Assembly (NCBI GenBank): GCA_012689325.1
Contig: JAAYEA010000376.1
Coordinates: forward strand, 1 to 43,193
Reading direction: 5' to 3'
Length of the DNA stretch: 43,193 nt
Source: Chloroflexota bacterium
GTDB lineage: Bacteria > Chloroflexota > Anaerolineae > JAAYEA01
The first letter of the stretch is position 1; every line of letters begins with the position of its first letter. A program made the position numbers and the translations under genes. Positions 7,389 through 42,902 of the stretch are shown here, piece after piece. The notes under the pieces were generated by a model. The model was not told the DNA's origin, made no database searches, and saw nothing but the letters and a program-made list of their open reading frames with translations.

Positions 7389-10300
7389 CTACGCCCAATC
7401 CAGTTGCACCGAGTCCTGTCCCAAGAGATCATCGAGCTTGCGGCGCAGCTCGGGGTTATACTTGGTGGTATAGTTGGGGAAATCCACCTGAAAAACCCCG
7501 GCCTGGCTGATCACCTTGAGGCAGTAGCGGTCGTGCCCGTTATAGCTCTTGAGCAGCTCGCAGATCTGGTTCAGCCGGCGCCGGTCCTGGTCCAGATCCC
7601 TGGTCCGCTGGAAGGTGATGCTGAGCTGCCGAGGCCGATCGGCCAGGGGATGATCTTCCCTGATCTCGGTAGGGTTGAACTCCCGAGCCGATTGGCAGAT
7701 CAACTTGGCGCGCTCGTCGCGATCATCCACCCGCCCCTTGACCACCAGAACCGTGTCCTCGGTCCACAACGCCTCCATGTCCTGATAGGCGTTGGGAAAG
7801 ACCACGACCTCCACGGAGCCGTGCAGATCCTCGAGCTGGACGAAGGCCATGGCCTTCTCGGTCTTGGTGGTGATGACGCGCACGCTGGTGACCATGCCGG
7901 CCACCTCCACCATCTGGCCCTTCATCGAGACGTCAAGCTGGCTGCAAGGGATCACGCCGGCGGGCAAGCGCATCAGCGCCTGCAGCGGGTGCTCGGAGAC
8001 ATACGTGTTGAGCAGCTCTTTCTCCCAGGCGCTCAGCGCCTTGGCCGGGATCGGGTCGATCCGCGGCAAGGGGTAGAACAGGGAGGCGCCGTCCTTGCTG
8101 TCGCTCAGGCCGTCCAGGTCGAAAAAGCTGCGTTGCCCAATGTCCTGGGCCGCATGGCGCTGGTGGCTATAGTTCACCATGCGCTCCGCGATCTCGAGCA
8201 ACTGGCCGCGCCCGCCAAAGCTATCCAGCGCGCCAGCTTTGATCAGGCATTCCAACACGCGACGGTTCACCTGGCGCAGGTCCACCCGCTCGCAAAAGTC
8301 GTCGATGCTCTGGAAAGGTTGCCCGTTCCGGCCCTGCAGAATGGCCTGCACCGGCCCCTCGCCGACATTCTTGATGGCGCTCAGGCCAAAACGGATGGCC
8401 GGCCGGCCAGTCACGCCCGGCGGCAGGCTTAGCGCCAGCCCGGCATTGTCGGCGGCCCACTTGACCTGGTCCTCGGGGATATAGGTGATCGCAAAGTCCA
8501 GGTCGCTCTCGTTCACGCTCGGCGGCAACACCTCGATGCCCATCCGCCGCGCTTCATTGGTCAACAAGCCCAGCTTTTCCGTGTTGTTCCGCTCGACGGA
8601 GAGGAGCGACGTCATGTACTCTACCGGATAGTTGGCCTTGAGATAAGCCGTATAGAGGGTGACCATGGCATAGGCGGCGCTGTGCGGCTTGTTGAAGCCA
8701 TAGTTGGCAAAATACATGATCGAGTCAAAGATAGTGTTGGCTTCTTCCGCGGACAGGCCGCGCTCCATCGCCCCCGCGACAAACTTTTCGCGGTGAGCGG
8801 TCAGCTCCTTCTCCTTCTTTTTGGAGACGGCGCGGCGCAACAGGTCGGCATCGCCGATGGAATAACCGGCCACGTCGCGAGCCATGCGCAGGATCTGCTC
8901 CTGGTAGACGCAGACGCCATAGGTTTCCTTGAGGATCGGCTCCAGCGCGGGGTGCGGATACTCGATCGGTTCTTCGCCATGCTTGCGCTTGATATAGTTG
9001 GGGATGAACTGCATCGGGCCGGGGCGATACAGTGAGATCAGGACCACCACGTCCTCGAACACCGTGGGGCGCAGCTCCACCAGGGTCCGCCGCATGCCCG
9101 CGCTCTCGAGCTGAAAGAGGCCGGTCACCTCGCCAGCGCAGAGGATCTGGAACGCCTTGGGATCGTCGAGCGGGATCGTCTCCAGGGTCAGCTCGATGCC
9201 ATGTTGCTGCTTGACCAGATCCATGGCGCGCTGCAAGATGGTCAGCGTCGAAAGCCCCAAAAAGTCGATCTTGAGCAGGCCGATCTCTTCCAGGGCCGTC
9301 ATGGAATAGGTGGCCAGGGTGCCCTCGCCATTGGGCGCGCGCTGCAGGGCCACATACTCGGTGAGCGGTTTATCGCCGATGACCACGCCCGCCGCGTGGG
9401 TGGAGGCATGGCGAGCCACGCCTTCCAGCGCCAGCGACTTGTCGATCCAATCCTTGACATAGTCCTGCGACGCGTACATCTGCTGGAGGGGTGAGCCTTC
9501 CTCCAGCGCGTCCTTGAGCTTGACCTTGGGGCCATAGGGCACCAGCTTGGCCACGCGGTCCACTTCCGGCAGCGGGACGCCCAGCGCCCGGCCCACGTCG
9601 CGGATCACGCCGCGGGCCGCCATGGTGCCAAAGGTGATGATCTGCGCCACGCGGTCCTGGCCGTACTTTTGGACCGTGTACTGGATCATCTCTTCGCGGC
9701 GGTCGTCGGGGATATCCAGGTCGATATCGGGCATGGTCACCCGGCCAGGGTTCAGGAAACGCTCAAAGAGCAGGTCGTGCTTGAGCGGGTCCAGCGCCGT
9801 GATGTTCAGCGAATAGGCCACGATGCTGCCCGCGCCGGAGCCACGCACCGACATGAGGATGCCGTGCTCTCGCGCATAGCGGCAGAGGTCCCAGACGATG
9901 AGGAAATAGGTGTCAAAGCCAAGCCGATGGATCAGGTCCAGCTCGTAATACAGGCGCTGCGTGACCTCAGCCGTGATGACGCTATAGCGCCTTTTGATAC
10001 CCTCCTCGCTCAGGTAGCGGAGGTAGCTCTCGGCGTCATATCCCGCCGGCACATCGAACGGGGGCAGGTGATATTGGGTGCGGTTGAGATTGACATGGCA
10101 GCGCTCCGCGATGGCCAGCGTGTTGGTCAGCGACTGTGGGACCGAGGCAAAAAGCTCGGCCATCTCGTCGGGGCTGCGCAGATAGTAATCCGGCGAGGAC
10201 ATGGTCATGCGCTTGGGGTCATCCATGGTGGTGCCGGTCTGGATGGCCAGCAGCAGCTCCTGGGCGGCAGCGTCCTCTTTGCGGATATAGTGGACATCGT

Positions 10301-28515: not shown

Positions 28516-29766
28516 CTAGTTGGGCCTCTCCAAACGGATCCGCAACGCCAACAAGGTGTGATCCTGGCGCTGTATGGCCAGCACGCTGGCCAGGTTTCCT
28601 GCCGCAGCCGGCGCGCGGCTCTCGTCTATAAAAGAGCTCGCGTCCAGATAAACGACTTGCTGCACGCCCGAATCGAGCCTGAGGGTCCACGACTCGCGGG
28701 CCATCGAGACGACGCGCCCGCTGAACCGCTGCTCCTCGGACGGGTTGATCTCCTCCACGAGGATATAGGTCGCCCGCACGGAGCCGTCCGCCTGCTGCGC
28801 TCCGGACACCTCCGCGGTCAACCCCACGTGACCTTGCCGAGGGATCTCGGCGCCCGCGATCCACACGCGGGTGCCGGATACGGTCCACCAGTCGCCCTGC
28901 ATCGCCTCGATGACGCCCTCGAACTCGACCTGTTGCGCGGCCTCTCCGGGCGCTGAGGTGACGATGCGTCGGGCCAGCACCGACCCATCGGCCCGCCGCT
29001 CGCCGCGCACGTCGGCGATGCGCCCCAGGGCGATCTCGCCGACGATCTGGGTCTCGCCGTCGGTGACTACCTTGGCGCCGGACACGGTGAGCCTCAACGC
29101 CGAACCGGCGCCTTCGATGGCCTCGATGTTGCCTCTGAGCTCGTAAGGGGTCGCCTCGATGGCGCCGATGCGGACCTGGATTCGCTCGGCCACCAGCGAG
29201 CCGCTGCCATCACCGCTGGCATACACCAGCGCCCAGTCGCCGATGACGGGCTGATAGCCCGCTGGCTCCACGACGGTGGAGGCGATCACCAGCACGTCTT
29301 GGCCGGCCACGGTCCACAGCACGTCTCCCGCGCCTCCGACGGGCGTCATGGCCGAGATGCGCCCCTCGAAGCGCACCTTGGTGGGCCGCGGCGGCGTGAC
29401 CGCGGACAGGGAGACGCGCGTGTTCGCTCCCGCATGCCAGACCAGGGTCTGGTCCACGGCCACATTGGCGACCTTGAAGGTGATCGCCTCGCCTTCCTGG
29501 CCGCCATCGCGGCCCGCGCGAGCGGGATTATCGGCCGCGATATCCATCATAAAGATGGACTGGTTCAGATAGCAGTAGCAGACGCCCTCGGCGACCTTGG
29601 CATCGCCGATCCAGGCGGTGAGCGACGCATAGGGTGGTAAAGCCTTGCCATCCAGCGTGATATAGCCATAGAAACCCGCCCTGGGAGCAGCGGCGATGCT
29701 TGCTGATCTCGGCACAAGGAAGAGGGAGAGCAGGAGCAAGGAGATCAGTAAGGTTTTTCTACCCAT
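28516..29766 (-). CDS. Secreted protein with four DUF5666 repeats
   Basis: A cleavable signal peptide (KTLLISLLLLSLFLVPRSASIAAA) leads into an approximately 100-residue beta-rich domain beginning GFYGYITLDGKALPP. Four DUF5666-type repeats follow, each about 60-70 residues with a FEGxIxAM...W-x-V-x-G core and a DGSxxAxRI end (about 132-200, 208-269, 280-339 and 347-413). The same repeat forms the outside part of the anti-sigma factor encoded just upstream, which suggests that the two proteins bind a common partner or each other. ATG 29766 has AGGAGG 7 nt upstream. Confidence 0.8.
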   Translation of the reverse strand: MGRKTLLISLLLLSLFLVPRSASIAAAPRAGFYGYITLDGKALPPYASLTAWIGDAKVAEGVCYCYLNQSIFMMDIAADNPARAGRDGGQEGEAITFKVANVAVDQTLVWHAGANTRVSLSAVTPPRPTKVRFEGRISAMTPVGGAGDVLWTVAGQDVLVIASTVVEPAGYQPVIGDWALVYASGDGSGSLVAERIQVRIGAIEATPYELRGNIEAIEGAGSALRLTVSGAKVVTDGETQIVGEIALGRIADVRGERRADGSVLARRIVTSAPGEAAQQVEFEGVIEAMQGDWWTVSGTRVWIAGAEIPRQGHVGLTAEVSGAQQADGSVRATYILVEEINPSEEQRFSGRVVSMARESWTLRLDSGVQQVVYLDASSFIDESRAPAAAGNLASVLAIQRQDHTLLALRIRLERPN

Positions 29767-29869
29767 GACGAGGCCTCCTGAAGCGCCACGAACAGGCAGC
29801 AGCGCCAACGGACGTGATGGCGAGTTGTATTCCCCCAGGAACGCATCGCAACAGATTGGTGTCGCACAC

Positions 29870-31696
29870 TCAGGGCATAACGATCGGATTGGACGTTGGC
29901 CGCGGCCGCACCACGCCCGGCGTCTTGGCGGCGAGCGTCGGCTGCGTCTGCGAGATGGCCGTCTCCGTGGGCAGCGGCGACGGTTCTGGCGTCACCGCGG
30001 TGCCCTGCGTCGGCGCGGGCGTTGGCGTCGCTGGCACCAGAGCCACCGTTGGCGACGGCTCTGGCTCCGCAGACACCCGAATCCAGCGCGCCACCAAAGT
30101 GCCGTCCGCCTTTTGCACGGCCTCTACCTCGGCCAGCCGGCCCACCGCCGGAGCGCCCTCGATGGCCGTCTCGGCGGTAATCTTGATCGCGCGCCCCTCC
30201 ACGACCCACTCGGTGGCGGAAAAGCTCTGGATGGCGCCCTCGAACTGCACGACGATCTCGGGCTCCAAGACCCGGATATGCGTGGCGGTCCACGGTCCAT
30301 CTTGGAAACGCTTGGCCCGGACTGCGGCCATTCGCCCCACCACCGGCGTGCCCTCGATGGTCGTATCGGGCGCGATGCGCACCGCCTGCCCGCTGACCAC
30401 CCATGCGGCGTCGGTAAAGGACTCGATCAGGCCCTGGAACTCGGTGACCTCGGGCTCGCGCGCGGCGGGACGCTCGATGACGATCTCGAGCGCCACCAGC
30501 GCGCCATCCGAGTCGCGCCGTACCGCCGTGACCCGCGCCCAGGCTCCCACCTCGGCGGGGCCGCCGCGCTTGTCGATCACCGTCTCCGCGGTCACGAGCA
30601 CCGTCTCGCCGCCGACCTGCCAGGAATCCTGGCCGATCTGGGAGATCGAGCCGGAGAACTGCAGCTTGATCACGCGCGGCTGGGTCGGCGTCGCCGTGGC
30701 GGTCGAGGTCGCGCTAGGGGTCAGGGTGCGCGTCCGAGTCCGCGTTGAGGTGGGCTCCGCCGTCGACGTGGACGTGCGGGAAGGCGTGGGCGACGCGGTA
30801 TCCGGCGGGATCGGCGTCTTGGTGGGCTCCGCGGTCTGGGTCTCCGTAGGGATGGCCGTGGCCGTACCGACCGGCGTGTTCGTCGGCGCCGGCAGCGGCG
30901 TATCGGTGTTGACCACAGCGGGAACCGTGGCCGAGGAGGTCGGAACCGCGGTCGGCGCCGCCATGTCGCTCTCGATCTCGATCCTGCGCGCCAGCACCGA
31001 GCCGTCCGGCTGGGTCCAGGCTTCCACCTTGACCTCGGCACCGCTCCCCAGCGCGGGCGCCAGGGTCACGTCGCTGGGCAGGGTCACGGTCACACCGCCG
31101 ATCACCACCACGGTATCCGAGATGATGTCCAACGTGCCGGTGAAGGCCACGCTCGCCGCGCGCCGCTCCTCCAGGAGCGACTTGGTTTCCGCGATGCGCC
31201 GCTCCTCGAAGGCATCTCGAAGGTCTTCTTTGGCCACGTTATCGAAGGTCAGCCAGAGCTGCACCTTTTCGCGGACCAGCTTGACGGGGTAAAAGACATC
31301 ACCAGGCAGGCTGCGCGCCGAAGCGACCAGCGCGCCCCCACCCAGGGAAAGCGCCGCAAAAGCCAGGACCAGCGCCGCCGTGGCGAATCCCCTGGCCAGC
31401 GTCGCGGGCGCGCCGCCCAGGTTCCGCCACCACGCCGACGCGCGAGCCAGCAGGGAACGTTGACGGCGCTCGCGCAGGACCACGGCCTGCTCCAGAAACT
31501 GCCGGCGACCGGCCGCTAGGGCGGCTGCAGAACGCGGGGGCACGGGCTGCAATGCGCGCAACTGCCAGGCAGCACGAAGCAAGGGAGCCAGTCGTTCTGC
31601 TTCTTCGGGATGCTGTGCCAGGCAAGCACGCAGGTCTTGTTCAGACCCAATTTGGTTGAGGCACTGGTCTAGTAACGACTCAAAATCCTGGCTCAC
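29870..31696 (-). CDS. Transmembrane anti-sigma factor with DUF5667 and four DUF5666 repeats
   Basis: The cytoplasmic N-terminus (1-100) would hold the sigma factor; one helix spans about 103-127. DUF5667 follows (129-185: SLPGDVFYPVKLVREKVQLWL), then DUF5666 repeats at about 183-242, 346-408, 417-476 and 482-542. Thr/Pro/Ser-rich linkers (248-340 and 545-600) suit passage through a wall. No zinc-finger (H-x3-C-x2-C) is present, so it is not a ZAS-type anti-sigma factor. The GTG start overlaps the sigma gene by 17 nt and has GGAGGAAGG upstream, which points to a matched sigma/anti-sigma pair. How the signal is released is unknown. Confidence 0.85.
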   Translation of the reverse strand: MSQDFESLLDQCLNQIGSEQDLRACLAQHPEEAERLAPLLRAAWQLRALQPVPPRSAAALAAGRRQFLEQAVVLRERRQRSLLARASAWWRNLGGAPATLARGFATAALVLAFAALSLGGGALVASARSLPGDVFYPVKLVREKVQLWLTFDNVAKEDLRDAFEERRIAETKSLLEERRAASVAFTGTLDIISDTVVVIGGVTVTLPSDVTLAPALGSGAEVKVEAWTQPDGSVLARRIEIESDMAAPTAVPTSSATVPAVVNTDTPLPAPTNTPVGTATAIPTETQTAEPTKTPIPPDTASPTPSRTSTSTAEPTSTRTRTRTLTPSATSTATATPTQPRVIKLQFSGSISQIGQDSWQVGGETVLVTAETVIDKRGGPAEVGAWARVTAVRRDSDGALVALEIVIERPAAREPEVTEFQGLIESFTDAAWVVSGQAVRIAPDTTIEGTPVVGRMAAVRAKRFQDGPWTATHIRVLEPEIVVQFEGAIQSFSATEWVVEGRAIKITAETAIEGAPAVGRLAEVEAVQKADGTLVARWIRVSAEPEPSPTVALVPATPTPAPTQGTAVTPEPSPLPTETAISQTQPTLAAKTPGVVRPRPTSNPIVMP

Positions 31697-32618: not shown

Positions 32619-34538
32619 ATGATCTTGCCCGACGAAATGTTCATGGAGGGCCTGGAGGAAAAAGCCAGGTCCGATCGGCATCCCGCAGCCTGGCGTGAGG
32701 TGATGCGCTGGCTGGAGGAGCGCTCTGTCCAAGAGCTGCGCCAGCTCGCCCAAGTGCGCGGCGCGTCGCCCCATGCCACGCGCAAAGTAGAGCTTGTCGC
32801 CGAGCTGGTGGGCTTGCTGACCAATCGGGAAAGCGTGGAGCGCGCCATCGCGGAGGTGAGCGAAGCCGAGCTGGCCACCCTGCAGATGGTCTATCTGCTG
32901 GCCACGGAGGAAGGGCTCTCCCGGCAAGAGGTTCAAAAGGCCCTCCTGGCCTGGTATGGCCCCCTGGTGGCCAAGGATGCGACAGCCCACCTGGAGAACC
33001 TGCGCTCTCGGGCCCTTCTCTTTGGCACGCCCGATGCCGCTGGGGCCACCGCCCGTTTCCAGCTGCCGAAAGCGGTGGCCGCCTGCCTTCACTCCCTCCG
33101 CAAACCCATCGAATCGCTGACGCTCTCGGAAGATAGCCAGACCCGCCATTTGCCCACCTCGCTCTTGCTCGAAGCCATCCTGGCGCTATGGCAATACACC
33201 AAAGAAAGCGCCATGCGCATACGGGGCCTGAGCATGGCCTCATCAGGCCAGCCGCAGGAACCGGGAGAGTATAGCGAACAGCCCAACCTGAACCGATGGC
33301 TGGAAGAACAACAGCGCGGGCAAGAGATCGACAACGACGAGTTGTACGTCGATATCCCCCTCCCTGCCCACGGTCTGGAGCCCGCCGACCTGAGCGAGCT
33401 GGCCCGGGCAACGGGCTGCCCGCCCGAGATGATCGAGTTCATTTGCGCGCTGCTGCTCGAGATGGGCTTGGTGACCCTCGCCGCCGACGAGCTTCAGGTC
33501 AACGAGCTGGCCATGGAACGCTATCGCCGGCACGGCGAGGTGCAAAAGCTCCAGGCATTGACCCTGGCCTGGTTGGGGACCTCGCGGTGGAGCGAGCTGC
33601 GCCTGGCCGCGGGACGCATGCAGGCCCGCTTGCAGCGCCATATCCGCGCCCAAGAGGTCGGGTACCGCCAGATCAGCCAGGATATCTCGCACACCCGTCA
33701 GTTCATCGCCCGGCTCCTGAGCCTGCTGGACAAGAACCGCTGGTATAGCCTGGACTCTTTGCTGGAGGCCATCGGGCAACTGTGCCCCGATCTGGCCTGC
33801 CTCGCCCAGAGCCAGGTCGCGCTGTTGCCCCGGTGGCGGCTGGCAGGTCCCGAGGCCAAGCCGATTGCCCATACCAATGCGGCGGCGTGGCGCCAAAGTT
33901 ACGGCCAGATCGTGGCCGCCACGGTAGAGGGGCCCCTGGCCTGGCTGGGATGCGTGAGCCTGGCCTATCGCGATGGCGAGCTCGTGGCCTTCCAGTTGAA
34001 CGGGCTCGGCCAATACGTGCTGGGGCGCTTCCCCCGCGCCCTCTCCAGCGGCGGCGATATGCGCCCGCTGACCGTCGCCGAGGACCTGACCATCAGCGTG
34101 CAGTTGGGGCGCGTGGATGCCGAGATCCACGACTTTCTGGGGCAATTCACCGACCTCGTCGAAGCCGAGTCCGACATCTTTCGGTATCGCATCTCGCCTC
34201 AGCAGCTCAACCAGGCGCTGGAAAGCGGGATCACGCTCCAGGGTATCCTCTCCTTTCTCGAACGGGTGAGCGGCGCGGCGCTGCCCGATAGCGCCAAACG
34301 CAAGCTGACCGAATGGTGCGATTCCTATGGCTCGGTTCGCCTTTATGAAGGGCTGACGGTCATCGAGTTCGCCGATGACTATGCCCTTCGGGAGCTGATG
34401 AACACCACCTCCCTGGCGGACCACCTGATCTACCAGCTCTCACCGCGCATGGTGGTGATCGAGCCGGACTCCCTGGAGGCCCTCATGTCCGAGATGGTCA
34501 AGAAGGGGTACACTCCCAAAGTCGAGGAGGCGCCCTGA
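32619..34538 (+). CDS. SAP-like plus XPB/Ssl2 N-terminal-like (Helicase_C_3) protein
   Basis: A 639-residue cytoplasmic protein. Residues about 35-68 fit the SAP DNA-binding pattern (SVQELRQLAQVRG...RKVELVAEL). A winged-helix-like middle part and a C-terminal region at about 482-632 resemble PF13625 (helicase XPB/Ssl2 N-terminal domain): ISVQLGRVDAEIHDFL, YRISPQQLNQALESG and GILSFLERVSGAALP. It is a diverged paralogue of the next gene: both also share an AWLGCVSLAY / HWLGVVSLGW block followed by VAFQLNGLGQYVLG / VAFRVTPIGAQILG. No Walker motif is present. AGGTG lies 7 nt upstream of the ATG, and the stop overlaps the next start (TGATG). Confidence 0.75.
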   Translation: MILPDEMFMEGLEEKARSDRHPAAWREVMRWLEERSVQELRQLAQVRGASPHATRKVELVAELVGLLTNRESVERAIAEVSEAELATLQMVYLLATEEGLSRQEVQKALLAWYGPLVAKDATAHLENLRSRALLFGTPDAAGATARFQLPKAVAACLHSLRKPIESLTLSEDSQTRHLPTSLLLEAILALWQYTKESAMRIRGLSMASSGQPQEPGEYSEQPNLNRWLEEQQRGQEIDNDELYVDIPLPAHGLEPADLSELARATGCPPEMIEFICALLLEMGLVTLAADELQVNELAMERYRRHGEVQKLQALTLAWLGTSRWSELRLAAGRMQARLQRHIRAQEVGYRQISQDISHTRQFIARLLSLLDKNRWYSLDSLLEAIGQLCPDLACLAQSQVALLPRWRLAGPEAKPIAHTNAAAWRQSYGQIVAATVEGPLAWLGCVSLAYRDGELVAFQLNGLGQYVLGRFPRALSSGGDMRPLTVAEDLTISVQLGRVDAEIHDFLGQFTDLVEAESDIFRYRISPQQLNQALESGITLQGILSFLERVSGAALPDSAKRKLTEWCDSYGSVRLYEGLTVIEFADDYALRELMNTTSLADHLIYQLSPRMVVIEPDSLEALMSEMVKKGYTPKVEEAP

Positions 34539-36796
34539 TGAGTTCAGCGCTGGAGGACCTGCTCCGGAGCTATAGCCCCAACGCCCAGCAGACCATCGCC
34601 AAGATGAACGGTCTGGATCCCGAGGCCCTGCCAGGTACGCCAGATCATGTGCGCGTCCTGGCGCAGGCGCTGGCGCGCCCGGAGCGGATCGAGCGCGTCC
34701 TGTCCGATCTGGATGGCGTGGAGCGGTTGGTGCTGGAGCGCCTGCTGCTTCAGAACGGACAGGCCAAAACCGACCTGTTGCGCCAGGAGCTGTTGCAGAG
34801 CGGCTTCATCCCCGAGTCACCCTCGGCGAAATACGTCGGCTCGCCTTACCGCCAGCTTCCGCGCTACTTTGAGGATGTCCTGGCTCGCCTGGCCGCCCTG
34901 GGTCTGGTCCTCTCCACCGGCGACAGCGAGCACAACGACCTCGCCGAGCCTGCCGAGCTCAGCCCTAGCGCCAGGGTGCTGATCCCCGACGAGATCCGCC
35001 GGACCCTGCCCTCCTCGCCCACGTGGCTGCCCACCCTGCCGCCTGACGGCCTCTCCCAGATCGTCGAGGGCGCGCCCGACGAGTTCCAACGTGACCTGTT
35101 TCTCTTCTGGAGCTATGCCAATAGCCATCAGATGGTGCTAACCTCGCGCGGATGGATTCCCAAACGGCATTGGACGCACCTTAACGAGGAGTTCAGGTAC
35201 AAGGAAAGCCTGCGCGGGCTCCGCAACGAAGGAGAGACCGGCCGCTTTGGTTTCTTGCACATCCTCATGGAAGAGATGGGCCTTTTGCAGCAGGCGGAAC
35301 GCGAGCTCAAGCCCGCACCCAACTCGCGCGAATTCCTGGCCCTGAGCCTGCGAGCGCGCACCGAGCGCGCCTTGCGAGCCTGGTTAAGGGCCTCGGCCTG
35401 GAACGAGTTGTCGCGCATCCAGGAGCTTTCCAGCAACTCGCCGCGCCCGCCCAGCAGCCGCCTGACCTCCGCCCTCAAAGGCGCGCGGCAATTCGTCGCG
35501 GGGCTGCTGCGGCATGCCCCTCCCGACCAGTGGGTCTCCTTAAAGGGCTTTATCGAGCGCGCCAGGGCAGTCAATGACGAGTTTTTGCTGCCGCGCTACC
35601 ATAGCTACTATGGCTTCCACAACCCCTATCATGGCCACGGCAACGCCGTCTCTTGGGAGTTCCCCGCCTTTGACGAAGCCAAGGGCTGGGACCTGGTCGA
35701 GGCGCGCCTGATCGCCAATATGCTGCAAGAGCCGCTGCATTGGCTGGGCGTGGTCTCGCTCGGCTGGGCCGCCAACGAGCCGGTCGCCTTTCGCGTGACC
35801 CCCATCGGCGCGCAGATTCTCGGCATCAGCTCGCCGCAGCCCGAGCAGGCGCCGGAGCGCCGTATCATCGTGCAGCCCAACTTTCAGATCTTTGCGCTGG
35901 ATCCGATCAGCGACTATACCCTGTCCCTGCTGGACGAATTCGCCGAGCGGGTCAAAAGCGAGCGGGTGTTCGAGTACCAGCTCTCCCGCGAGTCGGTCTA
36001 TGAGGCGCAGCAAAAGGGGGTGACCGCGGCCCAGATCGCAGCGTTCCTGGATCGCGAGAGCAACACCCCCGTGCCGCAGAATGTCAAGATGACCCTGCAC
36101 GAGTGGGGGCGCTACCACGAGCGCATCGTCTTTTACCAGGGCGTCGCCCTCTGCCAGGTGGCGGAACCGGACATCCTGGACCGCATCCTCAACGATCCGC
36201 GGGTATCCGCGCACCTAGCCGCCCGCATCTCCCCGACGACCGCGATGGCGCGGGGCAGCGGCGCGGGCTTGCAGGGGCTGCGCAAAGCCCTGCACGGCAA
36301 GGGGATCCTGTCCACTTCAACCAGGTCGATGCCGCCCTATGCCGTGCAACCAGATGGGCGCATCCGCTTCCGGCACCGCGTCCCGGATTTCCACATCCTG
36401 CACCAGTTGGCGCCCTTTACCCTGGAGCGGGATGGCGACCTGCGCATCACGGAGGAGGCGGTGGCCAAAGCGGCCTCCACGGGATGGACGGCCGCCAGGA
36501 TCATCCAGACCCTTTCCGCGCAACAGCAAGAGGCCTTGCCCCTCGATGTGGTATCCAAAATCAAGGTATGGGGCAAGCACTATGGGGATGCTGCCATCAG
36601 CAAGGTGACGCTGGTGCAGTTCAAAAGCGCGGATATCCTGCGCGAGTTGGCCGAGGACCTGGAGATCGGCCCGCTGATCGTGCCGTTTTCGCCCACGGGC
36701 GCGCTGGCCATCGTCCGCGACGAGAACGTGGATGCGCTTCGTGCCGCCCTGCGCCAGCGGGGCATGGGCCTGGATAGCCAACTCCGCTCCGGCTGA
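34538..36796 (+). CDS. Helicase-associated (XPB-partner-like, PF13625) protein
   Basis: A 752-residue protein in the size range of the actinobacterial helicase-associated proteins encoded beside XPB (for example Rv0862c with Rv0861c). Two copies of the XPB-N-like fold are suggested. One is at about 440-560 (IIVQPNFQIFALDP, YQLSRESVYEAQQKG, IAAFLDRES...VPQNVK). The other is at about 603-735 (DLRITEEAVAKAASTG and a closing IVPFSPTGALAIVRD). No ATPase motif is seen. Its ATG overlaps the preceding stop by one base, so the two paralogues are made together and may form a heterodimer. A DNA-repair or DNA-remodelling role is inferred only from the family. Confidence 0.78.
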   Translation: MSSALEDLLRSYSPNAQQTIAKMNGLDPEALPGTPDHVRVLAQALARPERIERVLSDLDGVERLVLERLLLQNGQAKTDLLRQELLQSGFIPESPSAKYVGSPYRQLPRYFEDVLARLAALGLVLSTGDSEHNDLAEPAELSPSARVLIPDEIRRTLPSSPTWLPTLPPDGLSQIVEGAPDEFQRDLFLFWSYANSHQMVLTSRGWIPKRHWTHLNEEFRYKESLRGLRNEGETGRFGFLHILMEEMGLLQQAERELKPAPNSREFLALSLRARTERALRAWLRASAWNELSRIQELSSNSPRPPSSRLTSALKGARQFVAGLLRHAPPDQWVSLKGFIERARAVNDEFLLPRYHSYYGFHNPYHGHGNAVSWEFPAFDEAKGWDLVEARLIANMLQEPLHWLGVVSLGWAANEPVAFRVTPIGAQILGISSPQPEQAPERRIIVQPNFQIFALDPISDYTLSLLDEFAERVKSERVFEYQLSRESVYEAQQKGVTAAQIAAFLDRESNTPVPQNVKMTLHEWGRYHERIVFYQGVALCQVAEPDILDRILNDPRVSAHLAARISPTTAMARGSGAGLQGLRKALHGKGILSTSTRSMPPYAVQPDGRIRFRHRVPDFHILHQLAPFTLERDGDLRITEEAVAKAASTGWTAARIIQTLSAQQQEALPLDVVSKIKVWGKHYGDAAISKVTLVQFKSADILRELAEDLEIGPLIVPFSPTGALAIVRDENVDALRAALRQRGMGLDSQLRSG

Positions 36797-36976: not shown

Positions 36977-39900
36977 ATGACGTCCCCCGAATCGCTCAAC
37001 CAGATTCTGGATGCAGGCCCTCGACCAGGCGTCGTTTTTCTACCCACCCTCGACCTGGATGACGTCCCGCGAGTCGATGCCGAGCGCGATATCACGCCAT
37101 CCACCCTAAAGCAGGCCCGTGAAGCCACGCTGGCCATGCGGATCATGGCGCTGGCCAATGGCCCCAGCGGATGGGGAGACCGGCGCTACCTGATCCTCGG
37201 CGCCCGCCCCACGGGCGAACTCGTGGGCCTGGCCGAAGGGGCGCTCAGCAACGACATGGTGCAACGGATCGCCCAGCGCTATTGCGACCCACTGGTCCTT
37301 TGCTACTATCAGGAGCAGCGCACGCGAGGCCAGCGGGTGGGCATGGTGGTCATCTCGGATAGTCCGGCGAAACCCTTCCGCTTCGCCGAGGATGTTAGCT
37401 ATCAGCAGGGCGGGCGCGCCAAGCCGGCCTACCGGCGCGGCGAGATCTGGCTGCAGGCGGCCGACCAGGCCCGCGAGGCCACCGCGGACGAGATCGTGGC
37501 GATCAAACTCGACGCGGCGCGGGTCAAGGCCGCGCGCGGGTCGTCCCTCGTCGCCGCGGGCGACCAGGCCGACGAAGCGATAGACGCCGCCGCATGGCAG
37601 CCGCGCCGGGGCCTCTCGCTCATCACCGACGAGTCGCCCGCCATCGAGATGAACCCCGCCGTGCAGGAAGCGCTGGCGCGCACGATCCTCGAGCAGCGCG
37701 TGCTCGTCCTGTGCGGCCCGCGGCAGGAGACCTGCGCGATTGCAGAACACCTCGCCCGGCAACTGGGTCGCGAGCTGGACAACCCCGTGTACCGCGCCGC
37801 GTCCGAGGCCACCTCCTCCGAGTTCTTGTCCGCGGTGGCAACCCGGCAGCGGTTGGTGGCCCTGGCTTGCGAGACGGCGCCGCGCGAATGGCGAGGCGCC
37901 CTGGCCGAACTGCAACGCCTCGCCCAGCGCCAGGATGCTTTCATCCTGCTGGCGTCCGGCGCCCCGGCCAGCGCATGGCGGATTTCGCCGGACCTGCAGC
38001 CCAGCCTGGTGGACCTGGCCACCCAATCAGCCTACACGCAAGAGGCCCTGGCCGAGCTGGCGCAGGCTCAGATCGTCCCGGGGATTCCCAGCCAGGCCCT
38101 GGCCGGCCAGAGCGTGGAGGCCGTCACGGCGCCGTTGGGCAGCCCGGAAGCCATCGGCCGCCTGGCCGAGATCACCGGGCGCGCTCCGCTGCGCAGCCCA
38201 GCGCAACTGGAGGACGCCGTCGCCTTGGCCGCCGACCCGCTCCGCGACGCCGTGGAGTGGTTCTGGGCGCTCGACTATCACCAGCGCTACTTTGTCCTGG
38301 CGGTCTGCCTGCTGGGCAACCTGCCCGCCACGACCTTTTGGCGCTACTATGAGCAGCTCGCCGCCGAAAGCTGGCGCACCCGCGAGCCGACCTTGCGAGC
38401 CCTCCCCGGCCTCGATCACCTCCTGAGACGGCACCTGCAGGAGGACCTGAGCTTCCGGTACCCGGAGGCCAGGGAGGCGATCCTCGCCGAGGCGCTGCGC
38501 CGCTACACCCGTCCCCTGGTCTGGGCCCTGCCCAACCTGCGGGACATCATCGTCCAGCTCGGCGAAAATGTCCTGCATGCGGACACGGCGCCGACGCGAG
38601 CGGCCCGCCAAAACGTGGCCGAGGCCCTGGGCGCGCTGGCGCTTAGCGATTGGGAGGCCGTGCTGCCGGTCTTGCAGCGTTGGGCGACCCAGCGCGTTCC
38701 CGAGACGCGGCTGGTCGCCTCGCGGACGCTGGCGCGCGCCATCGCCGAGGGCGATGCCGGATTCACGGAGCGCGTGCTGGCCGTGCTCGACGGCTGGACC
38801 AACAATGTGGCCCTGGAGGCCGGCTGGGCGGCGCCCCGACAGGCCTACCGCGTCCGCTGGACGGCCGCCTGGGCGCTGGGGCAGGCTTGGCGCTATCTGG
38901 AATCGGAGGCGGCGCGGGTCGCCGCGCTGGCTCCCCTCTGGACCCTGGCGCGCGACACGGACCCCCGGGTGCGGCAGGGCGTGGCGCAGGCCATCGCCTC
39001 GCTCGCGCCCCTGGGCTTCCAGGACCTGGCGGGCATCCTGGGCTACCTGGCCGACGACCTGAGCAAGCCGGTGCGCTCTCACGTGGCTGCCGCCATGGGC
39101 GCCTACGCCGCGGCCGCGCCCCAAGAGACGCCAAGTATCCTGCGCGGCTGGGCTAGCGAGCCGGACACGCTGCGGCGCTGGACAGCCGCCGCGAGCCTGC
39201 TCCAATCCTGCAACCAAGGCCAGCCCTGCGACGAGCTCCTGGCCCTGGCCCCGCAGAACCCTGCGGGAGAGGACATCGTCGCGGAGATACTGACCGAGGT
39301 CGGCGAGACCCCGGGGGTCGCGCCGGAGGCCCTCGCGCCGCTGCTGGAGCGAACCGCCCAACAGGACCACCCCGCCGCTCGTTCCTGGACTGGGGCTGCC
39401 TTGCAGGCCCTGGCGCAATCGCCTGAGAAGCGTCCCGCGGCCCAAAAGCTGGTGGAAGGCTGGCGCTCCGCCAGCGACCCCGCGCTGGCCGCGGCAGCCG
39501 TCGAGTGGGATCGGCTCCTTAAGCAAGCGCCCTTCCGGCCGGTCCGCGCGCCAGTTCAGCCAGCAACGCCGCTGGATACCGCCCTGGAAGAGCTGGAAAC
39601 GGAGCAACCCGCCCCGGCCGCCGCCCCGCTGCGCATCGAGGAGCGCGCCAAAGAGCCCGCCGCGGAACCGGCGGTGGTTCAGGGCCCCCGTCGCTGGCTG
39701 CGACAGGCTTCGCTGGAGGCCGAGAAGGCCCAGAGCCGCTACAGGCTCTTGGCCAATATCGCGCGCGGCCTGTTGCGCGCGGCGGCCATGGCGGGCATGA
39801 CCTACGCAGTGCTTCGGCGATTCCCGTACTATGACGACCAATGGCTTCCCGTGCTGGTCCTCGCCGTCCTGGCGCTGGGATATGCCAAACCAGCGCTCGG

Positions 39901-40717
39901 CACAGCCCTGGGGGCCGTGATCGCCCTCCTCCCGCTGCTCTATCACGCGCCGGCGCTGGCGCTGGGGGTCGTGGTGTTCGGGGCCATCCTGTTCGCCCTA
40001 TCCGGCTCCCTGGGCGAAGAACACCTGCTGGAGAAACGGCTGGCCGTGTTGGCCTTCCCCATGCTGGTGGTGACGCCATGGGCGCTGTTGCTCCCCTTCC
40101 TGGCGGGCAGCCTCTTCCGCAAGCGCGCGGCCTGGGTGGTGGTGGCGGGGATACTGCTGGCCATCGTCGTGGGGGTGGCCCTGGGGCAGGACGCGATGGG
40201 AACCTATCTGGTGACCGGCGTCGCGCCCACGGAGAGCTTGGTGCTGGAGCGCGCCGCGCCGGAACGATGGCAGTCGCTGGGGTGGCTGCTCGACTTGGAC
40301 ATGTTCAAGATGGCTGGAACCGGCCTGCTTGCGCTGGCGCGGCAACTCGTCGACGCTTTTATCACCACCCCGCTGCCGCTGGTCCAGCTCGCCCTCTGGG
40401 GGCTGGTGGCCTGGCTGGCTGGCTGGGGAGCCAGCCAACCCCGGGTCAAGACGGGCGGGCCGTTGATCGCCCTGGCCGCCCTGCTCATGATCGCTTGCTA
40501 CAGTTTTGTCTTTCCCGAGCTGCTGAGCTGGGAGCTGCCTTTCGGGACGGGCGGGACCATGAACGGGCGGATCGTGCTGGGCGCCCTGGCGGCGCTGCTG
40601 ATCGCCTTCGGCTGGCCCTGGGCGCGCGCGACTCTTGGGCAAGCGAGAACCTGGGAGATGCTGCGACGTTACCTGACCGACGGAAAGGACTGGCTGGTTT
40701 CCGCCCTGCGCAAGTAG
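36977..40717 (+). CDS. Schlafen/AlbA_2-like, degenerate NTPase, HEAT-repeat and polytopic membrane fusion protein
   Basis: A 1246-residue protein of unusual layout. Residues about 45-180 resemble the Schlafen AlbA_2 domain: MRIMALANGPSGWGDRRY, LILGARPTGELVGLAEG, and the late AYRRGEIWLQAADQA with ATADEIV. Residues 225-400 look like a STAND/NTPase core whose P-loop is decayed: VLVLCGPRQETCA has no G-K-S/T. Helical pairs at about 500-850 (for example DTDPRVRQGVAQAIASLAPLG, KPVRSHVAAAMGAYA) are HEAT-like. After a Pro/Ala/Glu linker, about 925-1215 holds some eight membrane helices; the N-terminal domains would be cytoplasmic. GGAGG lies 11 nt before the ATG. Its stop is 7 nt from the convergent penicillin-binding-protein gene. 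Function unknown; nucleic-acid sensing at the membrane is a hypothesis. Confidence 0.75.
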   Translation: MTSPESLNQILDAGPRPGVVFLPTLDLDDVPRVDAERDITPSTLKQAREATLAMRIMALANGPSGWGDRRYLILGARPTGELVGLAEGALSNDMVQRIAQRYCDPLVLCYYQEQRTRGQRVGMVVISDSPAKPFRFAEDVSYQQGGRAKPAYRRGEIWLQAADQAREATADEIVAIKLDAARVKAARGSSLVAAGDQADEAIDAAAWQPRRGLSLITDESPAIEMNPAVQEALARTILEQRVLVLCGPRQETCAIAEHLARQLGRELDNPVYRAASEATSSEFLSAVATRQRLVALACETAPREWRGALAELQRLAQRQDAFILLASGAPASAWRISPDLQPSLVDLATQSAYTQEALAELAQAQIVPGIPSQALAGQSVEAVTAPLGSPEAIGRLAEITGRAPLRSPAQLEDAVALAADPLRDAVEWFWALDYHQRYFVLAVCLLGNLPATTFWRYYEQLAAESWRTREPTLRALPGLDHLLRRHLQEDLSFRYPEAREAILAEALRRYTRPLVWALPNLRDIIVQLGENVLHADTAPTRAARQNVAEALGALALSDWEAVLPVLQRWATQRVPETRLVASRTLARAIAEGDAGFTERVLAVLDGWTNNVALEAGWAAPRQAYRVRWTAAWALGQAWRYLESEAARVAALAPLWTLARDTDPRVRQGVAQAIASLAPLGFQDLAGILGYLADDLSKPVRSHVAAAMGAYAAAAPQETPSILRGWASEPDTLRRWTAAASLLQSCNQGQPCDELLALAPQNPAGEDIVAEILTEVGETPGVAPEALAPLLERTAQQDHPAARSWTGAALQALAQSPEKRPAAQKLVEGWRSASDPALAAAAVEWDRLLKQAPFRPVRAPVQPATPLDTALEELETEQPAPAAAPLRIEERAKEPAAEPAVVQGPRRWLRQASLEAEKAQSRYRLLANIARGLLRAAAMAGMTYAVLRRFPYYDDQWLPVLVLAVLALGYAKPALGTALGAVIALLPLLYHAPALALGVVVFGAILFALSGSLGEEHLLEKRLAVLAFPMLVVTPWALLLPFLAGSLFRKRAAWVVVAGILLAIVVGVALGQDAMGTYLVTGVAPTESLVLERAAPERWQSLGWLLDLDMFKMAGTGLLALARQLVDAFITTPLPLVQLALWGLVAWLAGWGASQPRVKTGGPLIALAALLMIACYSFVFPELLSWELPFGTGGTMNGRIVLGALAALLIAFGWPWARATLGQARTWEMLRRYLTDGKDWLVSALRK

Positions 40718-40724
40718 CGCCGCC

Positions 40725-42848
40725 TCAGGGAGCCGCCTGCGCCAGGCCGAGATAGCTCTCCACCGCCTTGCGGAAAATGGGCGCGGACTCGACCCCACCT
40801 TCGCCGCCATGGTCAACGACCACGGCCACGGCGATGGTGGGGTTTTCTGTGGGCGCATAACCCGCGAACCAGGCGTGCGGCTCCGTCGGGCCGGCCTCCG
40901 CCGTGCCCGTCTTGCCTGCCACGGGCACCTGAATGCCCGCGAAAGCCAGGTAGGCCGTGCCGTAGGGCTCCATGGCGACCTCGCGCAGCGCCTCTTGGAT
41001 CAGGTCCAGATGCTCCGGCGAGATAGGGAGTTGGCCGATGGACTCTACGGCGAAGGCCGTCTCCGTCCCCCCGCCCAACGACATGATCCGGTGCACCAGC
41101 CGGGGGCGATAGAGCGTGCCGCCGTTGCCCACCGCCGCCAGCAGGTTGGCGGCCTGCAGCGGCGTCACCAGCATATACCCCTGCCCGATAGCCATGTTGA
41201 CGGCATCCTGCGTCGTCCAGAAGGGGTTGGAGACCTGGTCAGGGTGAGCCTGCTTCCACGCGGGGTTGGGCACCAGGCCAGCCGCCTCGTCCACGCCCTG
41301 GATTCCGGTCAGTTGCCCCAGGCCGAACTTGGACGCATACCCGGGCAGGATTTCGGCGTTGGTCTCGTCCAGCGCCTTGCCCACCTCGTAAAAGACCACG
41401 TCGCAGGACTGGACCAGCCCATAAAACAGGTCGATAGTATTGTGCCCCGTTTTGAGCCAGCAATTGCGCACCAGGCCATCGTTCAGCCCCATCCATGAGC
41501 CGGGGCAAAAGAACGACGACTCGGCCGCAAAAGCGCCCTCTTGCAGGGCCGCCGTCATGCTCACGATCTTGAAAACCGAGGCGGGAGGATACTGCCCCAG
41601 CGTTGCCCGGTTGACCAGGGGATGCAGGGGGTTATCGAGCAGCGCCTGCCACTGCGCGGCCGAGAGCCCCCGGCTCATCTCGTTGGCGTTGAACGAGGGC
41701 CGGCTCACCATCGCCAGGACATCGCCGTTGGTCGGGTCGAGCGCCACCACGGCGCCGGCCCGGTCACCCAACGCCTCATAGGCGGCCTTTTGCAGCGCCG
41801 GGTCCAACGCGAGATAGACGCTCTGTGAGGGCTGCGCGGCCACGTCCTTGAGCACCTTGACCGTCTGCTCGCCGGACATGATCGCCAGCGTGCCCCCGCG
41901 TTTCCCTGCCAGGGGGCGTTCCGCCCACCTTTCCACGCCCGCCTTGCCTACCGTATCATCCACCATGTAGCCCAACGAGCGCCACTGCTCCCACTCTTCC
42001 GCGCTGATCTGCCCCGTATAGCCCACGATGTGCGCGAACAGGTCGCCCTGCGGGTACGCCCGCACCAACTTTTCCTGGCGCGAGACCCCAGATAGGTTCG
42101 CGAGGACGCCCTGCAAAGCGGCGTTCTGTTCCTGGGTGATATCGGCGACGGGCATGAACCAATCCTGGCGCGCGGCGGAGGCGTACTTGTTCCGGATCGC
42201 CTCCCGCGGCATCCCCAGCGCAGAGGAGAGGGTATCCAGGAGCTTGTTCTCATCCTGGATCCACTGCGGCACCACGCCCACCGAGATGACCTTCTCCTGT
42301 ATCGCCAGGGCGGTCCCATCTCGCGCATAAATGTTGCCGCGCTGCGGGGACTTGATGGAGAGCCGGACCAGCATGCCCTCCTGCAAATCCTCCAGCATGG
42401 CCTGTGGGGTCCAGGCGATGCGCCAGGCGGCGCCCTCGGGCACGAACGCGAGTCGATTTCGCGCGTTCACCGGCCCTAGCAGCGTCGTCTCCAAGACCAG
42501 GTCATAGAGGACATCGACGCGCTCCGGGGATATAGCCTCGGTGCCCGCCCGCTGAGCCTGAAGTTTGAGCAGCGCCATCTCGTTGTGCAGCCCGCGGTAG
42601 CGCTGGGTAAAGGCCCCCTGCGAGATGGATTGCTGGGCCGCGGAGGCGAGCAGGCCGTACATGGCGCCCCAATCGCTCCGCTGCCACGCCTCCATGAAGG
42701 TTTGGGCCGTCTGGGCGATCTGCTCCAGCGGCGGCGCCGGCGTGGGCGACGGCGTGGGCGTCGTCGGGCTCAAGGCGAGTTGCTCGCAGGCCGCGAGCGC
42801 CAGAGCGAGAGCCAGAACCATCACGAACGCGAGGCTTTTTATCTTCAC
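40725..42848 (-). CDS. Class B penicillin-binding protein (transpeptidase), lipoprotein, MecA_N-type
   Basis: A D,D-transpeptidase that cross-links peptidoglycan outside the membrane. A lipoprotein signal ends at LALAAC (C21). A Pro/Thr linker and an NTF2-like MecA_N domain (about 40-155) precede the dimerisation domain (about 160-330) and the transpeptidase domain. Its motifs are S424-V-F-K427, S481-C-D (in place of the usual SxN) and K646-T-G. The GTG at 42848 is chosen because AGGAG lies 7 nt upstream; a GTG at 42899 would put that site inside the gene. It is convergent with the AlbA/HEAT protein gene. The MecA_N domain does not by itself imply beta-lactam resistance. Confidence 0.9.
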   Translation of the reverse strand: MKIKSLAFVMVLALALALAACEQLALSPTTPTPSPTPAPPLEQIAQTAQTFMEAWQRSDWGAMYGLLASAAQQSISQGAFTQRYRGLHNEMALLKLQAQRAGTEAISPERVDVLYDLVLETTLLGPVNARNRLAFVPEGAAWRIAWTPQAMLEDLQEGMLVRLSIKSPQRGNIYARDGTALAIQEKVISVGVVPQWIQDENKLLDTLSSALGMPREAIRNKYASAARQDWFMPVADITQEQNAALQGVLANLSGVSRQEKLVRAYPQGDLFAHIVGYTGQISAEEWEQWRSLGYMVDDTVGKAGVERWAERPLAGKRGGTLAIMSGEQTVKVLKDVAAQPSQSVYLALDPALQKAAYEALGDRAGAVVALDPTNGDVLAMVSRPSFNANEMSRGLSAAQWQALLDNPLHPLVNRATLGQYPPASVFKIVSMTAALQEGAFAAESSFFCPGSWMGLNDGLVRNCWLKTGHNTIDLFYGLVQSCDVVFYEVGKALDETNAEILPGYASKFGLGQLTGIQGVDEAAGLVPNPAWKQAHPDQVSNPFWTTQDAVNMAIGQGYMLVTPLQAANLLAAVGNGGTLYRPRLVHRIMSLGGGTETAFAVESIGQLPISPEHLDLIQEALREVAMEPYGTAYLAFAGIQVPVAGKTGTAEAGPTEPHAWFAGYAPTENPTIAVAVVVDHGGEGGVESAPIFRKAVESYLGLAQAAP

Positions 42849-42902
42849 GAGCGAACTCCTGGCCTCCAATACGAGGCCGGGCTTTGGATGGCGTATCACG
42901 GC

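What the first reader, a model, noticed from the sequence alone, without database searches (positions are those of the whole stretch)
36977..40717. Membrane-bound Schlafen/HEAT protein with a dead P-loop
AlbA_2-like, degenerate NTPase, HEAT repeats and about eight membrane helices in one chain is a combination I cannot assign to a known family. AlbA_2/Schlafen domains act on nucleic acids in defence and regulation, and STAND-type cores sense foreign molecules. Together with the neighbouring DNA-binding paralogues it may be a membrane-tethered sensor of nucleic acid or chromosome position.
Basis: partly seen in the sequence, partly recalled or inferred. Interest (0 to 1): 0.68.

Follow-up and report, generated by a model that had tools for sequence, protein, structure and literature searches.

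The report
Membrane-anchored Schlafen-STAND protein, dead ATPase
A large Chloroflexota membrane protein joins a Schlafen-type nucleic-acid-binding domain to an immune-receptor-like (STAND) core whose ATPase has died in this lineage while a sister genus keeps its key motifs; it looks like a rare, membrane-anchored variant of a known sensor design, function unproven.

Summary
ORF 36977-40717 (+, 1246 aa) encodes AlbA_2 (about 1-185), a degenerate P-loop domain (226-345), a STAND C-terminal part (346-545), HEAT repeats (546-850), a linker, and about 8 membrane helices (924-1216), predicted N-in/C-in. The only full-length relative found, in a sister genus, keeps the whole architecture (37% identity) but has an intact Walker A (GAAGVGKRT) and best matches nSTAND3. 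So the P-loop is a STAND NTPase that died in the window's lineage; identity there is 20%, against 50% in AlbA_2 and 40% in the membrane part. AlbA_2 lacks the third acidic residue of the Schlafen RNase triad in both genera, so binding without cleavage is more likely than RNase. The link to the upstream DNA-binding paralogues fails: in the sister genome they lie on another contig, and the conserved neighbour is a convergent PBP2 gene. No defence island. Verdict: new variant of the STAND/NLR-like kind, related in plan to SAMD9 and Avs5, member of neither. Stronger side lead: AlbA_2-NACHT genes between cas10 and csm2 of type III-A CRISPR operons in 11 of 298 genomes of the class.

The parts
36977..40717 (+). 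Whole gene, 1246 aa AlbA_2 - dead STAND - HEAT - 8 TM protein
   Evidence: orthologue 37% identical over full length in G001
36977..37531 (+). AlbA_2 (Schlafen-type) domain with N-terminal extension, residues 1-185; acidic residues D29 and D34 at the two Schlafen Glu positions, third acidic position replaced (LILGARP)
   Evidence: Pfam; profile link to L013; alignment; Foldseek of a low-confidence model
37652..38011 (+). Degenerate P-loop NTPase domain, residues 226-345
   Evidence: aligned to intact nSTAND3-like domain of orthologue, 20% identity
37703..37738 (+). Walker A remnant LVLCGPRQETCA, residues 243-254
   Evidence: orthologue has LVVLYGAAGVGKRTL
37853..37873 (+). Walker B remnant LVALACE, residues 293-299
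   Evidence: orthologue has CILVVEDAN
38012..38611 (+). STAND C-terminal (helical, winged-helix-like) part, residues 346-545
   Evidence: 36% identical to orthologue; with the HEAT region shared with a CHAT-STAND-HEAT protein in G021, E 1.1e-37
38612..39526 (+). HEAT repeats, residues 546-850
   Evidence: Pfam HEAT_2 1.4e-7; PP2A scaffold HEAT chains in PDB
39527..39745 (+). Pro/Ala-rich linker and basic stretch, residues 851-923
   Evidence: 18% identity over residues 851-902
39746..40624 (+). Membrane domain, about 8 helices, residues 924-1216, with an outside loop of about 57 residues (1070-1126)
   Evidence: 40% identical to orthologue; no Pfam match
40725..42899 (-). Convergent PBP2-like transpeptidase gene (MecA_N - PBP_dimer - Transpeptidase); conserved neighbour, not an operon partner
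   Evidence: Pfam/NCBIfam; 51% identical gene in the same place in G001
32619..34538 (+). Helicase_C_3 protein 1 (XPB-associated type); neighbour, linkage not conserved
34538..36796 (+). Helicase_C_3 protein 2 (Tfb2/XPB-associated type); neighbour, linkage not conserved

Best explanation
A membrane-anchored, STAND-derived (NLR-like) sensor or scaffold. Shown from sequence: an AlbA_2 head, a STAND core that lost its NTPase in this lineage, a HEAT superhelix and an eight-helix membrane domain, with everything but the membrane part predicted to be cytoplasmic. Inferred: the AlbA_2 head binds nucleic acid (RNA or DNA) without cutting it, the HEAT repeats bind a protein or other ligand, and the membrane domain either holds the complex at the membrane or is the output that changes when the head or repeats are occupied. 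In the sister genus nucleotide binding by the STAND core would gate the switch; in the window species gating must be by ligand or oligomerisation alone.
For: Architecture conserved across two genera. The orthologue's core best matches nSTAND3, 4.8e-6, with an intact P-loop, the STAND type of Avs5 (PMC12931631). The STAND-C/HEAT part is homologous to a CHAT-STAND-HEAT protein that sits beside NACHT-FGE and phosphorylase-domain genes in G021, as expected of a swappable-head STAND design. AlbA_2 fused to a STAND-class NTPase recurs in this bacterial class. The NTPase segment alone has lost constraint: 20% identity against 50% AlbA_2, 36% STAND-C, 39% HEAT, 40% TM. Charge bias supports N-in/C-in. 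The AlbA_2 triad is lost at its third position in both genera.
Against: No functional data. Only two lineages carry the gene, so conservation rests on one pairwise comparison plus a truncated second copy. Pfam does not recognise AlbA_2 in the orthologue at E up to 0.1, and a two-sequence profile of the domain finds no AlbA_2 chain in the PDB. Structure models were poor (mean pLDDT 43 and 46). The gene neighbourhood gives no functional partner and no defence island. C-terminal, rather than N-terminal, membrane segments are unusual for STAND proteins (own knowledge).
Confidence: 0.45

Rival explanations
1. A housekeeping membrane-bound nucleic-acid-binding organiser or regulator: the AlbA_2 head tethers DNA or RNA at the membrane, and the STAND/HEAT part is only a stalk.
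For: Low mobility: the gene stays next to the same PBP2 gene in two genera; AlbA_2 is the best conserved part; a small AlbA_2 protein with one membrane segment exists in G158.
Against: Rare: found in only one family among several hundred genomes of the class, unlike a housekeeping organiser; the DNA-binding neighbours are not conserved partners.
Confidence: 0.25
2. A STAND receptor in decay: the window copy has lost its NTPase and is drifting to a non-functional remnant.
For: Walker A, Walker B and the sensor-like strand are all degraded only in the window copy.
Against: No stop codons in 1246 codons; AlbA_2, HEAT and membrane parts remain 39-50% identical between genera, so selection continued after or despite NTPase loss. 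Inactive STAND domains are known working parts of conflict systems (iSTAND, PMC7159879).
Confidence: 0.15
3. An envelope-stress or cell-wall sensor working with the convergent PBP2: the outside loop senses the wall and the inside parts signal.
For: Conserved convergent PBP2 neighbour in both genera; some iSTAND systems carry cell-wall-associating parts (PMC7159879).
Against: Convergent genes are not co-transcribed; shared position can simply reflect descent; no peptidoglycan-binding domain found.
Confidence: 0.1

Closest known systems
SAMD9/SAMD9L family (AlbA_2 - SIR2-like - STAND-like P-loop - TPR - OB; PMC5445408, PMC11221667)
   Same: AlbA_2 head in front of a STAND-like NTPase with an altered P-loop, then a superhelical repeat array; bacterial members exist.
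   Different: No SIR2-like or OB domain found, HEAT instead of TPR, membrane helices added, AlbA_2 triad incomplete (SAMD9 keeps E184/E196/D241).
Avs5 and other nSTAND3 STAND NTPases (PMC12931631)
   Same: nSTAND3-type core (in the orthologue) followed by a C-terminal repeat array; effector-type domain at the N-terminus.
   Different: Head is AlbA_2, not Sir2; membrane domain after the repeats; NTPase dead in the window copy; no defence context.
AlbA_2-NACHT proteins of the same bacterial class, inside type III-A CRISPR operons
   Same: AlbA_2 head fused to a STAND-class NTPase.
   Different: Shorter; Pfam shows no HEAT repeats in the two full-length ones scanned at E up to 0.001; triad candidates and Walker motifs intact; found in a CRISPR operon.
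iSTAND proteins of MoxR-vWA ternary systems (PMC7159879)
   Same: Inactive STAND domain kept as a working part.
   Different: No MoxR or vWA gene among the neighbours scanned (not searched genome-wide); different heads.
COG2865-type AlbA_2 proteins, e.g. PDB 3lmm
   Same: AlbA_2 fold (top Foldseek hits).
   Different: Soluble proteins without STAND, HEAT or membrane parts. Two further AlbA_2 matches lie elsewhere in the same genome; the frame read in L001 looks like this type by eye.

Membership tests
SLFN_AlbA_2 (PF04326) | Significant match to the family profile | tested here: inconclusive
   E 5.4e-4, 20.9 bits, below the 25.3 cut-off; 26.4 bits in the genome search; orthologue not matched at E up to 0.1
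SLFN_AlbA_2 (PF04326) | Homology to undisputed members | tested here: met
   Profile of the orthologues without L013 finds L013 at 6e-13; L013 is AlbA_2 at 1.2e-12; tblastn to the AlbA_2 part of L073 2.6e-7 (E for a single small subject)
Schlafen-type RNase | Three acidic active-site residues (two Glu, one Asp) | tested here: not met
   D29 and D34 fill the first two positions; the third is R/P in the window protein and R/E in the orthologue (positions mapped by alignment, not structure)
STAND NTPase (nSTAND3) | Walker A and Walker B motifs | tested here: not met
   Degenerate in the window copy; in the orthologue Walker A is intact and Walker B-like ILVVED is present; nSTAND3 score there 26.8 against cut-off 27.2
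STAND NTPase (nSTAND3) | Head - NTPase - helical/wH region - superhelical repeats | tested here: met
SAMD9 family | SIR2-like, TPR and OB domains | tested here: not met
   None reported by Pfam at E up to 1 for the window protein or 0.1 for the orthologue
Anti-phage defence system (PADLOC) | Match to a known defence protein family | tested here: not met
   No match for the window protein; orthologue only weak P-loop matches
Anti-phage defence system | Protection against phage | not testable with these tools
   needs experiment

The most novel reading that the evidence does not exclude
A membrane-embedded, ATP-independent NLR-like receptor: a STAND protein in which nucleic-acid binding by an inactive Schlafen domain is coupled through HEAT repeats directly to an eight-helix membrane output (channel, pore or envelope signal), with NTPase gating discarded in one genus.
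Probability: 0.15. Interest if true: 0.75.

Novelty: new variant of a known kind. Interest (0 to 1): 0.42.

Why it matters
If right, it is a natural pair of orthologues, one with and one without a working STAND NTPase, in an otherwise conserved receptor. That would let one ask directly what the NTPase does in an NLR-like switch and how a STAND receptor can work without it. It also adds a membrane-embedded layout to a class usually described as soluble or with N-terminal membrane effectors.

Tried and rejected
Defence-island reading: rejected for this gene, since both copies with visible surroundings sit beside ordinary chromosomal genes. Partnership with the Helicase_C_3 pair: rejected on synteny. 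CbCash (PDB 9ylu) as closest solved relative: the hit (5e-6) is carried by L013; with the window and its orthologue alone it vanishes. Structure prediction: both models poor, so the membrane model was not searched; the Foldseek result is used only as weak support, because AlbA_2-fold entries (3lmm, SLFN13, 2kyy) hold ranks 1-4 and 6 and the SAMD9 tRNase domain rank 11. Search for relatives of the membrane domain alone: only chance-level hits outside the family. Relatives in viral contigs and plasmids: none. Promoter/terminator scan ahead of the gene: nothing.

Full report
What is there. The window is a whole contig (C281) of a 5.29 Mb genome in 580 contigs. The nearest genome with a name is a Chloroflexota MAG. 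The reading frame 36977-40717 (+) is open for 1246 codons. Pfam finds HEAT_2 (1.4e-7) and a sub-threshold AlbA_2 match at residues 49-149 (5.4e-4). NCBIfam and PADLOC find nothing in the window protein.

The orthologue settles the architecture. In the only other held genome of the same family that the searches listed (G001, another genus) a protein of about 1290 aa aligns end to end at 37% identity. The same genome holds a second, contig-truncated copy (L007/L015), 79-81% identical to the first over the STAND-C, HEAT and TM parts. The full-length orthologue has an intact Walker A (LYGAAGVGKRTL) and a hydrophobic strand ending ILVVED, and its best match in that region is nSTAND3 (4.8e-6, 26.8 bits against a cut-off of 27.2). 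In the window protein the same stretches read LVLCGPRQETCA and LVALACE.

Constraint differs by part. Between the two genera identity is 50% in AlbA_2 (55% in the N-terminal 40 residues), 20% in the NTPase, 36% in the STAND C-terminal part, 39% in HEAT, 18% in the Pro/Ala linker and 40% in the membrane part. The NTPase region score is 52 against a shuffled mean of 33 (sd 6, maximum 61 in 1000), so its homology rests mainly on its position between conserved parts.

AlbA_2. Three lines support it: the Pfam matches; a profile of P0001 and its orthologues that picks out L013, a small AlbA_2 protein with one membrane segment in another family of the class (6e-13; Pfam 1.2e-12); and Foldseek of a low-confidence model, whose best hits are DIP2311 (3lmm), the SLFN13 N-domain, a RecG-related N-terminal domain and, lower, the SAMD9 tRNase domain. 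Against: Pfam does not list AlbA_2 in the orthologue, and the two-sequence profile finds no AlbA_2 chain in the PDB. Aligned with eleven other AlbA_2 domains, the first two acidic positions are D29/D34 (E/E in the orthologue), but the Asp of the IGVDD strand end is replaced (LGARP; IKPRE). The Schlafen active site is described as three acids, and mutation of E198/D243 in SAMD9L abolishes its effect (PMC11221667). RNase activity is therefore unlikely; binding is inferred.

Membrane domain. Seven strong hydrophobic segments plus a weaker first one, with 21 K+R in inside loops against 8 outside, fit N-in/C-in and eight helices. The domain has no Pfam match, and no relatives outside the family beyond chance.

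Distribution. In 60 relatives, 396 genomes of the class and 350 of the phylum, full-length relatives occur only in the one family; GTDB species contigs add only the same sister genome; viral contigs and plasmids none. The STAND-C/HEAT part is shared with a CHAT-STAND-HEAT protein in G021 (1.1e-37), which lies beside NACHT-FGE and phosphorylase-domain genes. This is the swappable-head pattern of STAND proteins.

Context. In both genera the gene is convergent with a PBP2-like gene (51% identical). In the window the other side is a pair of Helicase_C_3 proteins; in G001 their counterparts lie on another contig beside an HDAC-like gene and epimerase- and SurE-like genes. So the link to DNA-binding paralogues is not supported, and nothing marks a defence island.

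What it most likely does. The best reading is a membrane-anchored STAND-derived sensor or scaffold. The parts, the NTPase loss and the topology bias are shown from sequence; nucleic acid binding, ligand sensing by HEAT and the membrane output are inferred. In plan it resembles SAMD9 (AlbA_2 - SIR2 - STAND with altered P-loop - TPR - OB; PMC5445408) and Avs5 (Sir2 - nSTAND3 - repeats; PMC12931631), but it fails membership in SAMD9 (no SIR2, TPR or OB found) and is not a catalytic STAND NTPase in the window species. Inactive STAND domains as working parts are known from iSTAND systems (PMC7159879).

Side lead. Searching for the AlbA_2 domain uncovered an AlbA_2-NACHT fusion, open frames of about 680-745 aa where complete, lying between cas10/csm1 and csm2 in type III-A CRISPR operons. 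A profile of three such proteins finds it in 11 of 298 genomes of the class, 10 genera. In 9 of the 11 genomes one fetched stretch shows cas10 on one side and csm2 and csm3 on the other; in G079 the gene is split over two contig ends, with cas10 on one and csm2-csm5 on the other; in G152 only cas10 is seen beside a gene near the contig end. Pfam and NCBIfam confirm Cas10/Csm1, Csm2, Csm3, SLFN_AlbA_2 and NACHT in the loci scanned. Acidic triad candidates and Walker motifs are invariant in three proteins. The held library gave no paper on it, which does not show that it is unknown. This deserves its own study and may be worth more than the finding given.

Noticed in passing
L071 2303-4381 (G182), L072 1709-3844 (G295), L076 about 7878-9848 (G247), L089 5157-7154 (G031), L090 5368-7365 (G266), L091 5039-6799 (G023), L092 4174-6048 (G124), L093 1951-3291 (G273), L094 5434-6753 (G236), L073 2344-2913 with L096 40-822 (G079), L095 166-1131 (G152): AlbA_2 (Schlafen)-NACHT fusion gene between cas10/csm1 and csm2 of type III-A CRISPR operons, in 11 of 298 genomes of the class; order cas10 - AlbA_2-NACHT - csm2 - csm3 - csm4 - csm5, in several with a csx1-like gene after. 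Looks like a dedicated immune effector or switch of these operons.
   Followed up: partly
L067/L076, open frame of 676 aa, and row for G247: The G247 AlbA_2-NACHT open frame as listed overlaps the end of cas10, so its true start is probably later; the profile search reports one TAA inside the matched stretch, which runs just past the end of the frame.
   Followed up: no
L074 1297-2742 (G108): AlbA_2 fused to TPR repeats (481 aa), another AlbA_2-plus-repeats layout in the class.
   Followed up: no
L013 1351-1986 (G158): Small AlbA_2 protein with one strong C-terminal membrane segment: a second possibly membrane-tethered AlbA_2 protein in the class.
   Followed up: no
L010 6621-10532, 3304-5940, 1717-3219 (G021): CHAT-STAND-HEAT protein next to a NACHT-FGE-sulfatase-fold protein and a phosphorylase-domain protein: a likely conflict-system cluster.
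   Followed up: no
L007 (G001:C161): Second, contig-truncated copy of the orthologue in the sister genome, about 80% identical to the first in shared parts; it could be a paralogue or strain mixture in the bin (contamination 7%).
   Followed up: no
window 1793-3499 and 3474-7310 (-): Two adjacent ATPase-like proteins, the first ending in hydrophobic segments, the second with sialidase/YCF48-like repeats, a membrane segment and a P-loop (GGRKIGKTS); by eye only.
   Followed up: no
window 28516-29808 and 29870-31696 (-): Neighbouring genes with four DUF5666 stretches each, the second also with DUF5667.
   Followed up: no
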